DNA of 64,000 nucleotides from Evansella sp. LMS18 (GTDB lineage: Bacteria; Bacillota; Bacilli; Bacillales; Salisediminibacteriaceae), in NCBI RefSeq assembly GCF_024362785.1, contig NZ_CP093301.1, positions 310,001-374,000 on the forward strand, in the 5' to 3' direction. A program made the position numbers and the translations under genes. Below are positions 40,432 through 42,493 of this stretch, piece after piece (the stretch's first letter is position 1; each line of letters starts with the position of its first letter). The notes below the pieces were generated by a model. The model was not told where the DNA came from, made no database searches, and worked only from the letters and a program-made list of their open reading frames with translations.

Positions 40432-41052
40432 TTACTGCTGCATACCATGTCCCTGATTATTCATCGGCGCTCCAAGATTCGGCATTCCCATCCCTGGCTG
40501 TTTTTGCTGGTACTGGCCAGTCATTGGCTGGAACATAGCTGCCATCTGTGTCGTCTGGTCCTGGCTGAAAGCAGGAGGCTGATAATATCCATTCTGATTC
40601 ATCCATCCCCAAATTTCATACGCCATTTCCTGGCACAAGTTTGCTCCATTGACATGGTATGTGCGAAGCTGAGTATCCACACATTCATTTGCCCACTGCA
40701 TGCCCATGACAGAACCTGTTTTATGCGCATTCAATGCTAAAGTCGCAATAGTCTGGTCAGAAAGGGCCGTTATTTCACTCCTTGGGGCAGACATACTTAT
40801 CTGGTGATGCATGCCAGGGTTCCCCTGCACATTAAATTCAGGCGTCTGATGTGTAACCTGAGCCCCTTTTCCATTCATTAAATTTATACCTTGCTGATAT
40901 GCAGTAATCATCAGCTGCTGATGCTTCATTAGAATATTACGTAAGTTTTGGTCTTTACACTGATTTGCAAACATGCCGTGCTGTTCGATTTCAGCTGCTT
41001 TTGTCCGTAGTGCTTCAGATGTTTCTAATAGCTCGTGGGCTGCATAATTCAT
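40432..41052 (-). CDS. Spore coat protein, CotF family (206 aa)
   Basis: Two ferritin-like helical coat-F segments (MNYAAHELLETSEALRTKA, then ALNAHKTGSVMGMQWANEC), followed by a Gln/Met/Pro/Gly-rich tail (QQKQPGMGMPNLGAPMNNQG). CotF-type proteins are structural proteins of the inner spore coat. GGAGG-like site (CCGGAGGTT) before ATG 41052. Immediately downstream of the peroxiredoxin gene in the same direction. Confidence 0.88.
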   Translation of the reverse strand: MNYAAHELLETSEALRTKAAEIEQHGMFANQCKDQNLRNILMKHQQLMITAYQQGINLMNGKGAQVTHQTPEFNVQGNPGMHHQISMSAPRSEITALSDQTIATLALNAHKTGSVMGMQWANECVDTQLRTYHVNGANLCQEMAYEIWGWMNQNGYYQPPAFSQDQTTQMAAMFQPMTGQYQQKQPGMGMPNLGAPMNNQGHGMQQ

Positions 41053-41131
41053 TGGTTTTAACCTCCGGATTATATTGTGGGTTATTAAGCCCCTTGATTA
41101 GTTTGGACAAAGGCAAATGGAACATGCACGA

Positions 41132-41761
41132 TTAAACTTTCCCAATATTTTCAGTATCAGAACCAATGCCCGGATTACCAGGCATCCAGTTGGCCGGCGT
41201 CCCCAATTTTGTTTTTGCTTCATAATTCAACGCTTGTATTACCCTTAGTAATTCGTAACTGTTGCGCCCGATTTCTTTCGGATAAATCGACTTCAGTACA
41301 ATAACACCTGAAGGATCAACGATAACGGTTGCTCTGTATGCTGCTCCCGTATTTTCATCCAGAACCCTGTAAGCTTTACTGATTCTGTGGCTGCGGTCGC
41401 TTACAAGGGGATACTGCACAGTACCTGCGGAAGGAGAAGTTTCTTTAAAAACTTTATGGGCATATACACTGTCTGTACTGATGCCAAGTACTTCTGTATT
41501 CTGTTGTTTCAATTGAGGGTATAAAGCAGCAACTGCTGCCAGTTCAGTAGGTCAGACAAAAGTGAAATTACCAGTGTAGAAAAAAAGGATTACCCATTTA
41601 CCAAGGAGCTCCTGAAGGTTAATGGTAACAATTTGATTATTTACAAAAGCTTGCGCTGAAAAAACAGGTGCATAATCGTCCCTGGATGCACAATAAGGCT
41701 GTGTACCGGGAGATGATTCTTCTGTAAAAATCTTTTTCTGCCGCCGTTCGATTAGTACCAC
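41132..41761 (-). CDS. Peroxiredoxin (AhpC/TSA) with in-frame UGA at the peroxidatic position: candidate selenoprotein
   Basis: 209 residues if UGA 41554-41552 is read as Sec (residue 70). Before it: LLGKWVILFFYTGNFTFV; after it: PTELAAVAALYPQLKQQNTE and LGISTDSVYAHKVF, RISKAYRVLDENTGAAYRA, VIVDPSGV. The Prx motif is FTFVCPTE, so UGA replaces exactly the active Cys codon. No other disruption is seen over 209 codons. A SECIS-like hairpin follows. The resolving-Cys position (VCPANW in 2-Cys Prx) is GTPANW, so a 1-Sec enzyme. Start uncertain: GTG 41761 directly abuts AAGGAGG. A plain nonsense pseudogene is the alternative. Confidence 0.75.
41525..41554 (-). promoter_or_regulatory. UGA codon and SECIS-like hairpin in the peroxiredoxin mRNA
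   Basis: In the mRNA, UGA is followed after 11 nt by stem GGCAGC/GCUGCU (6 bp, one G-U) with loop AGUU; 17 nt separate UGA from the loop and a G is at loop position 2. This fits the general bacterial SECIS rules (loop about 16-37 nt after UGA, G in the first two loop positions). Small stems occur by chance, so the support is moderate. Confidence 0.55.
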
Positions 41762-41979
41762 CCTCCTTCCATTCCGTTACTTCATTAATATGTTTCTTCT
41801 TTATTTTTTAGGATTTGAAAACAATAAAGAAAACTCGCCGATTGGCGAAGTCAGAGGCGTAGTTGCACTTATACTTAGGCCGTAAAAATATTCACTGCGT
41901 CGAATTAACTTCATCGCTAAAATTTTATATTTTCTTAAAGTGCAAAAAAGACCCCTATATAAGGGATCCTCTGTTGCAA
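41762..41979. other. Short intergenic region with CG-rich hairpin
   Basis: Contains CTCGCCGATTGGCGAAG, a small hairpin, within a stretch that looks like other Bacillus dispersed intergenic repeats. It separates the peroxiredoxin gene from the CotF pair. Confidence 0.35.
41944..41968 (-). terminator. Terminator of the small CotF genes
   Basis: On the minus strand, GATCCC/GGGGTC stem followed by T6. Confidence 0.75.
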
Positions 41980-42273
41980 TTAAAACTGGTCATCAGGATG
42001 GAGATTGTTTTGCATGAGCTCCTGCACCTTTCCTATCTGGGCGGCAGTTGCTGCTTCTGTCATATACCAGCCTTTGTCATTGAGCAGATTAAACAGCCGG
42101 TAGTGGCCATCACTGGAGCTTTCCAGACAATGTCCATATATTTTCCGCAACGGTTCGTGGCTGACTTCAAGCATGGTGTTACTAAGGCTGCGGCACCGTC
42201 CTTTCTCCAGTTCCAGACAGAGCTGTACCATTTCCCTGTCGGTCAGCCCCCGTCCTTCCATATTATTCGGCAT
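41980..42273 (-). CDS. CotF-like spore coat protein (97 aa)
   Basis: Helical coat-F domain: GLTDREMVQLCLELEKGRC, HCLESSSDGHYRLFNLLNDK and GWYMTEAATAAQIGKVQEL. ATG 42273 follows GAAGGAGG by 8 nt; an upstream GTG/TTG-type start at 42309 lacks a site. Pairs with the 67-aa gene just upstream (16-bp gap), so one transcript. Confidence 0.82.
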   Translation of the reverse strand: MPNNMEGRGLTDREMVQLCLELEKGRCRSLSNTMLEVSHEPLRKIYGHCLESSSDGHYRLFNLLNDKGWYMTEAATAAQIGKVQELMQNNLHPDDQF

Positions 42274-42289
42274 TTTTCGCCCTCCTTCC

Positions 42290-42493
42290 TTATTGTAATT
42301 TTCCAGCACGGTTAAAATATTGAGAGAGTTCGGCTATCCTTAACTGATGCTGTTCGGCAATTTCTTCAAGAACTGTCTTAAGCTCCAGATCCTTACATTG
42401 GGATGCACACCAGTTCATCGTTTTTGCAGTTATTTCCTCGGCTCTTATCTCATCTTCAATAAATGCAAGTTCCTTCATTGTCAGCCCTGCCAA
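42290..42493 (-). CDS. Small CotF-related protein (67 aa)
   Basis: MAGLTMKELAFIEDEIRAEE, then MNWCASQCKDLELKTVLEEI and a helix QHQLRIAELSQYF. The CASQCKDLEL segment resembles the FANQCKDQNL of the 206-aa CotF protein, so a half-domain of the same family. TTG 42493 is 7 nt after GGAGGTG. First in the pair with the 97-aa gene. Confidence 0.78.
   Translation of the reverse strand: MAGLTMKELAFIEDEIRAEEITAKTMNWCASQCKDLELKTVLEEIAEQHQLRIAELSQYFNRAGKLQ

What the first reader, a model, noticed from the sequence alone, without database searches (positions are those of the whole stretch)
41132..41761. Peroxiredoxin with UGA exactly at the peroxidatic cysteine: candidate selenoprotein in a Bacillaceae
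Seen: the frame reads FTFV-UGA-PTE, all other codons on both sides encode an intact AhpC/TSA protein, and the UGA is followed by a 6-bp hairpin with a G in the AGUU loop 17 nt downstream. Known: FTFVCPTE is the peroxidatic motif of this family, Sec-containing peroxiredoxins exist in bacteria, and bacterial SECIS elements sit immediately after UGA. The resolving Cys is absent (GTPANW), so the enzyme would depend on one Sec and an external thiol. Inference: Sec insertion rather than a nonsense mutation. The weak start codon spacing is a caution.
Basis: partly seen in the sequence, partly recalled or inferred. Interest (0 to 1): 0.92.

Follow-up and report, generated by a model that had tools for sequence, protein, structure and literature searches.

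The report
Selenocysteine peroxiredoxin in a Bacillaceae bacterium
The apparent stop codon inside this antioxidant-enzyme gene is almost certainly read as selenocysteine, the rare 21st amino acid, as in nearly all of its close relatives; enzymes of this kind are already known, so the call is right but not a great surprise.

Summary
On the minus strand an AhpC-type peroxiredoxin has UGA (41554-41552) at the peroxidatic position, followed by a 6-bp hairpin with loop AGUU. The selenocysteine reading is strongly supported. The genome carries selC, selA, selB and a selD with its own UGA. Of 53 orthologues among 397 genomes of the order, 52 have one TGA; 51 of those 52 genomes have tRNA-Sec (128 of the other 345 do). 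The one orthologue without TGA has Cys, and its genome (G009) has no tRNA-Sec, SelA or SelB over the cut-offs. In 96 distinct sequences the hairpin is kept by synonymous compensatory changes (six pairs in 93 of 96; at most 21 in a synonymous null). Codons beyond the UGA are under purifying selection. It belongs to the known TxxU (Sec) peroxiredoxin kind, and a RefSeq record already annotates a relative across its TGA. Variant features of the clade: no C-terminal resolving Cys, the motif proline lost in 61 of 96, an N-terminal Cys motif in 79 of 96. Caution: this copy has ATC where E. clarkii has ATG as start, so expression of this copy is less certain than the family-level conclusion.

The parts
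41132..41761 (-). AhpC-type peroxiredoxin gene with in-frame UGA; reading from GTG 41761 or from ATC 41752, stop TAA 41134-41132
41762..41768 (-). Shine-Dalgarno AAGGAGG, 9 nt before ATC 41752-41750 (ATG in E. clarkii at the same spacing)
   Evidence: sequence
41750..41752 (-). ATC codon aligned with the ATG start of E. clarkii; likely non-standard start or damaged start
   Evidence: crude start test of 96 loci
41690..41692 (-). Cys24, the N-terminal Cys motif of the clade
   Evidence: motif in 79 of 96 relatives
41552..41554 (-). UGA read as selenocysteine (Sec70) at the peroxidatic position
41525..41540 (-). bacterial SECIS hairpin (6 bp, loop AGUU) directly after the UGA
   Evidence: criteria from PMC13188914

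Best explanation
The gene encodes an AhpC/Prx1-fold peroxiredoxin in which the in-frame UGA is decoded as selenocysteine by SelB and tRNA-Sec, directed by a bacterial SECIS hairpin directly downstream. Sec70 takes the place of the peroxidatic cysteine, reduces peroxide and becomes a selenenic acid. Because the C-terminal resolving Cys is missing, it is probably re-reduced by an external thiol system (thioredoxin, or bacillithiol and its redoxins), with the N-terminal Cys24 as a possible helper. Shown by computation: machinery in the genome, UGA conservation, covarying hairpin, selection beyond the UGA. Inferred: actual Sec insertion, catalysis, reductant. Efficient expression of this particular copy is less certain, because its start codon is non-standard.
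For: Own genome: tRNA-Sec 62.2 bits (cut-off 47) with anticodon TCA, SelB 363.4 (cut-off 242.25), SelA 542.3 (cut-off 267.9), SelD 408.9 (cut-off 125) with a TGA of its own. Codon at the site: TGA in 88 of 110 loci, 115 of 137. Order: 52 of 53 orthologues with one TGA among 397 genomes; 51 of these 52 genomes have tRNA-Sec over the cut-off, 128 of the other 345 do (Fisher p 8e-19 without correction for kinship). Family: 9 of 9 TGA genomes have tRNA-Sec and SelA, while G009 with Cys has no tRNA-Sec, SelA or SelB over the cut-offs. Hairpin: loop GU in 96 of 96, six pairs in 93 of 96, synonymous null mean 10.6 and at most 21 in 500 rounds; covariation score 0.273 against 0.129, 0 of 500 shuffles. 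Beyond the UGA dN 0.026, dS 0.29 against E. clarkii.
Against: No experiment. The hairpin of this one sequence is not unusual by shuffling (z 0.27). Two of the five covariation measures do not discriminate (435 of 500 shuffles reach them), because only two pairs vary by compensation. One TGA genome of 52, G065, shows no tRNA-Sec over the cut-off, though it has SelB over the cut-off and is in about 200 contigs. The window copy lacks a standard start codon at a usable distance from its Shine-Dalgarno. Before the UGA the constraint is weaker (dN 0.082, dS 0.21).
Confidence: 0.93

Rival explanations
1. The UGA is a plain nonsense mutation (pseudogene), or a real stop that yields only a short product.
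For: By table 11 the frame is interrupted, and the start codon is non-standard.
Against: The same UGA in 52 of 53 orthologues, constraint beyond it, covarying hairpin, tie to tRNA-Sec.
Confidence: 0.02
2. The family is a true selenoprotein family, but the window copy has begun to decay: ATG to ATC at the start has silenced or nearly silenced it.
For: E. clarkii has ATG at the aligned codon, the window ATC. By a crude test 94 of 96 loci have a standard start with a Shine-Dalgarno; of the two others L131 has ATG codons, the window copy only a GTG that abuts the Shine-Dalgarno.
Against: Frame, UGA and hairpin are intact; dN/dS over the whole gene about 0.16 against E. clarkii. AUC may work as a weak start (recalled), and a sequencing error is possible.
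Confidence: 0.15
3. The enzyme is not a one-Sec enzyme: the N-terminal Cys24 resolves the selenenic acid (a Sec-Cys pair).
For: N-terminal Cys motif in 79 of 96 relatives, present here.
Against: 12 of 96 have no Cys in the 66 residues before or after the Sec, so it cannot be needed in all. The model is a monomer and is under pLDDT 50 just before Cys24 (residues 16-23), so geometry is not tested.
Confidence: 0.3

Closest known systems
Sec-containing peroxiredoxin (Prx, PF00578, motif TxxU) of bacteria; first member PrxU of Eubacterium acidaminophilum (Sohling 2001, seen only as a citation)
   Same: AhpC-TSA domain with Sec at the peroxidatic position in TxxU (table row of PMC13188914).
   Different: Below NCBI's PrxU model (155.8 bits, cut-off 270). 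The proline of PxxxTxxU is Thr here and is kept in only 35 of 96 of the clade. I could not compare with the PrxU sequence itself.
RefSeq peroxiredoxin WP_225003809.1 of Cytobacillus spongiae (NZ_CP089998.1)
   Same: 60.4% identical, TGA at the same codon, same kind of hairpin; the annotated gene runs across the TGA.
   Different: It has a standard start (the annotated start is ATG) and Pro-free FFYSSDFTFVU; nothing essential differs.
AhpC, typical 2-Cys peroxiredoxin (TIGR03137; PDB 4mab)
   Same: Fold (TMt 0.95, 32% identity), catalytic Thr and Arg.
   Different: Sec for the peroxidatic Cys, no C-terminal resolving Cys; 160.1 bits against cut-off 272.

Membership tests
Sec-containing peroxiredoxin (TxxU) | AhpC-TSA/PF00578 domain | tested here: met
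   119.2 bits, cut-off 26
Sec-containing peroxiredoxin (TxxU) | UGA at the peroxidatic position, three after the conserved Thr | tested here: met
   T67-F-V-U70; TGA in 52 of 53 orthologues
Sec-containing peroxiredoxin (TxxU) | bSECIS: loop 3-9 nt, stem 4-16 bp, G in the first two loop places, 16-37 nt from UGA, MFE at most -7.5 (PMC13188914, legend seen) | tested here: met
   4 nt, 6 bp, G second, 17 nt, -9.0 kcal/mol; kept by covariation
Sec-containing peroxiredoxin (TxxU) | Sec machinery in the genome | tested here: met
Sec-containing peroxiredoxin (TxxU) | Pro of the PxxxTxxU motif | tested here: not met
   Thr63 in the window; Pro in 35 of 96 of the clade. A variation within the clade, since sister members keep it
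Sec-containing peroxiredoxin (TxxU) | Sec in the protein and peroxidase activity | not testable with these tools
   needs 75Se labelling or mass spectrometry, and an assay
NCBI PrxU equivalog (NF040737) | score above the curated cut-off 270 | tested here: not met
   155.8 bits
AhpC equivalog, typical 2-Cys peroxiredoxin (TIGR03137) | score above 272 and a C-terminal resolving Cys | tested here: not met
   160.1 bits; GTPANW, no Cys

The most novel reading that the evidence does not exclude
A Bacillales clade of AhpC-fold peroxiredoxins has turned into a one-Sec, glutathione-peroxidase-like enzyme: with Sec in place it shed both the resolving Cys and the otherwise well-kept active-site proline, and it draws on bacillithiol or thioredoxin. 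The Cys orthologue in G009, in a genome without Sec machinery, also lacks that proline, which suits a Sec-to-Cys reversal. The clade would then be a natural experiment on what Sec relaxes in a peroxiredoxin active site.
Probability: 0.4. Interest if true: 0.55.

Novelty: new member of a known kind. Interest (0 to 1): 0.4.

Why it matters
Among 397 genomes of the order, 53 have an orthologue, and 51 of the 179 genomes with tRNA-Sec have its TGA form, so in these bacteria the Sec trait serves an antioxidant enzyme as well as formate dehydrogenase and SelD. The clade offers a clean comparative set (Sec members with and without other Cys, and one Cys form in a genome without Sec machinery) to ask what selenium does for a peroxiredoxin without a resolving Cys. 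For annotation it is a reminder to read through a conserved UGA at a redox position before a gene is called broken.

Tried and rejected
Pseudogene by nonsense mutation: rejected. A changed genetic code was not pursued, because the UGA stands at a Cys position and the genome has tRNA-Sec. Conserved gene partner that would name the reductant: I clustered the neighbours of 88 loci; of the 22 largest clusters printed none covers more than 21 loci, and flanks were short for some loci. The two Coat_F neighbours of the window gene cluster only with E. clarkii. Mobile spread: no relative in viral contigs, one hit at E <= 1e-40 in 72,556 plasmid records; the phage collection was not searched. Promoter consensus: none in 40900-42100. 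Whether NCBI's models cover the clade: the window protein is far below the PrxU and AhpC cut-offs; one search scanned 38 members but printed no scores for the others, so I do not claim that none reaches a cut-off. Geometry of Cys24: not resolvable. Literature: ten searches (45 on SECIS, 74 on start codons) listed no paper devoted to this Bacillaceae clade. The library holds open-licence papers only and supplements could not be read; PMC5029168 counts 91 Sec-Prx in 78 organisms, which may include such genes. So I do not claim that it is unpublished.

Limits of the counts: the 96 sequences are one per distinct 63-nt stretch after the UGA, from 114 TGA loci (115 less L036, a distant relative of 36% identity that I left out). 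Some loci are the same genome reached by two tools (for example L010 and L039). One search kept the best 80 of 183 relatives. Searches were matched by reading both lists; one search used stricter filters. One search used 46 sequences (45 distinct), one search used 38. In the tree (119 rows) the fork with 96 Sec rows and L017 is weak (88/48); its Bacillales part is firm (98/97). L017 has a long branch and its exact neighbours are unsure (94/0).

Full report
What is there. The frame lies on the minus strand, 41761 to 41135, stop TAA 41134-41132, with one UGA at residue 70 (41554-41552) in FFYTGNFTFV-U-PTELAAVAAL. Pfam AhpC-TSA spans both sides. The model (mean pLDDT 86.1, 38 sequences) has the AhpC fold (4mab, TMt 0.95, 32% identity). 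The UGA stands where related peroxiredoxins have the peroxidatic Cys.

Can the organism make Sec? Yes. The window is part of a one-contig 4.9-Mb genome; the nearest named relative of the gene is Evansella clarkii DSM 8720, 90% identical. Within about 6 kb the genome has selA, a selD with its own in-frame TGA (UGCK), selB and selC, each over its cut-off. Two formate dehydrogenase alpha homologues carry one TGA each, each followed by a predicted hairpin with loop GGUCU.

Is the UGA conserved? In 110 loci the codon is TGA in 88 and Cys in 22; with 27 further loci it is TGA in 115 of 137. The Cys loci other than L017 are paralogues or distant peroxiredoxins (34-50% identical). In an even draw of 397 genomes of the order, 53 have an orthologue at E <= 1e-45: 52 with exactly one TGA and one, G009, without; its codon is TGT (L017).

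Does it follow the machinery? Of the 52 TGA genomes, 51 have tRNA-Sec over the cut-off, against 128 of the other 345 (Fisher p 8e-19, not corrected for kinship). The exception, G065, is in about 200 contigs; its best tRNA-Sec match is below the cut-off, but it has SelB over the cut-off. In the family (35 genomes) the nine genomes with the TGA orthologue all have tRNA-Sec and SelA. G009 has no tRNA-Sec, SelA or SelB over the cut-offs, and the hairpin of the clade is no longer its best fold. In the tree L017 lies inside the Bacillales Sec clade, which suggests Sec-to-Cys replacement with loss of the machinery; its long branch keeps this an inference.

Is the hairpin a SECIS? In this one sequence it is not remarkable (z 0.27). 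Across 96 distinct sequences it is. The stretch encodes Ala-Ala-Val-Ala-Ala or close to it, and third positions change in step: GCAGC-GGUC-GCUGC in 42, GCGGC-GGUC-GCCGC in 28, GCAGC-AGUU-GCUGC in 17, GCGGC-GGUC-GCUGC in 6, GCAGC-CGUG-GCUGA in 2, GCGGC-AGUU-GCUGA in 1. The loop GU is in 96 of 96 and six standard pairs in 93 of 96 (87 all Watson-Crick); the outermost pair is G-A in 3. Drawing synonymous codons from the genes' own usage gives on average 10.6 and at most 21 in 500 rounds. On 46 of these sequences count of structure pairs gives 23 cells with changes on both sides against 6.6, and a covariation score of 0.273 against 0.129, 0 of 500 shuffles each; two other measures do not discriminate (435 of 500). 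Related sequences count more than once in these tests. The form N-GU-N', N pairing with N', agrees with the bSECIS model of PMC13188914, and its four numerical criteria are met (legend seen).

Is the part beyond the UGA translated? Against E. clarkii the 139 codons after the UGA have 8 amino-acid differences, dN 0.026, dS 0.29 (ratio 0.09). The 66 codons before it have 12, dN 0.082, dS 0.21 (ratio 0.39). Constraint is strong after the UGA and weaker before it.

How it probably works (inference). Sec70 attacks peroxide and is re-reduced by thiols. None of the 96 has a Cys at the place of the AhpC resolving Cys. An N-terminal Cys motif is present in 79 of 96 and is Cys24 here; 12 of 96 have no Cys in the 66 residues before the Sec or anywhere after it. 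A one-Sec cycle with an external thiol is therefore the simplest scheme that fits all members. The proline of PxxxT is kept in 35 of 96 Sec members and in 21 of 22 Cys loci, the exception being L017; Thr at U-3 is kept in 95 of 96 and Arg143 in 96 of 96. The relaxed proline is the most unusual feature of the clade.

Caution on this copy. E. clarkii starts with ATG 9 nt after AAGGAGG; the window has ATC there, and its only in-frame GTG abuts the Shine-Dalgarno. By a crude test 94 of 96 loci have a standard start with a Shine-Dalgarno; the other two are this copy and L131, which has ATG codons. A weak AUC start, a sequencing error and beginning decay are all possible.

What is known. Sec-peroxiredoxins (TxxU) are an established family: PMC1088965 (43 genes in the Sargasso Sea set; passages), PMC1794560 (12 Prx selenoproteins; Bacillales with 3 families and 3 selenoproteins; passages), PMC5029168 (91 in 78 organisms; passages and one section), PMC9312934 and PMC13188914 (table rows and passages), PMC8533274 (passages). 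Sohling 2001 was seen only as a citation. A RefSeq record of Cytobacillus spongiae annotates a 60% identical relative as a peroxiredoxin gene that runs across its TGA, so NCBI already reads through in at least one case. The finding is therefore correct, and a new member of a known kind with variant active-site features.

Noticed in passing
window 40432-41052 and 41980-42309, minus strand: The gene lies between two Coat_F (spore coat) genes on the same strand; E. clarkii shares this, the other loci clustered do not show it. A link to spores is possible but untested.
   Followed up: partly
G000:C1:785000-788000 and 4357900-4360800 (L170, L171): Two formate dehydrogenase alpha homologues of the same genome carry an in-frame TGA in RIUHSS, followed by hairpins with loop GGUCU: probable further selenoproteins.
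   Followed up: partly
L036 (G034:C1:85223-85774) and G033:C1:802851-803234: More distant peroxiredoxins (36-37% identical) in two genomes of the family also have one in-frame TGA; L036 has it at the peroxidatic site, with a hairpin after it. Possibly a second Sec-peroxiredoxin lineage.
   Followed up: partly
L097, L057, L058: Records labelled Pseudomonas sp. ISL-84, Sporosarcina globispora DSM 4 and Paenibacillus sp. FSL R5-0490 carry copies that fall within the Cytobacillus group of the tree: mislabelled or mixed assemblies, or transfer.
   Followed up: no
G083, G103, G166: Three genomes of the order list two tRNA-Sec matches each.
   Followed up: no
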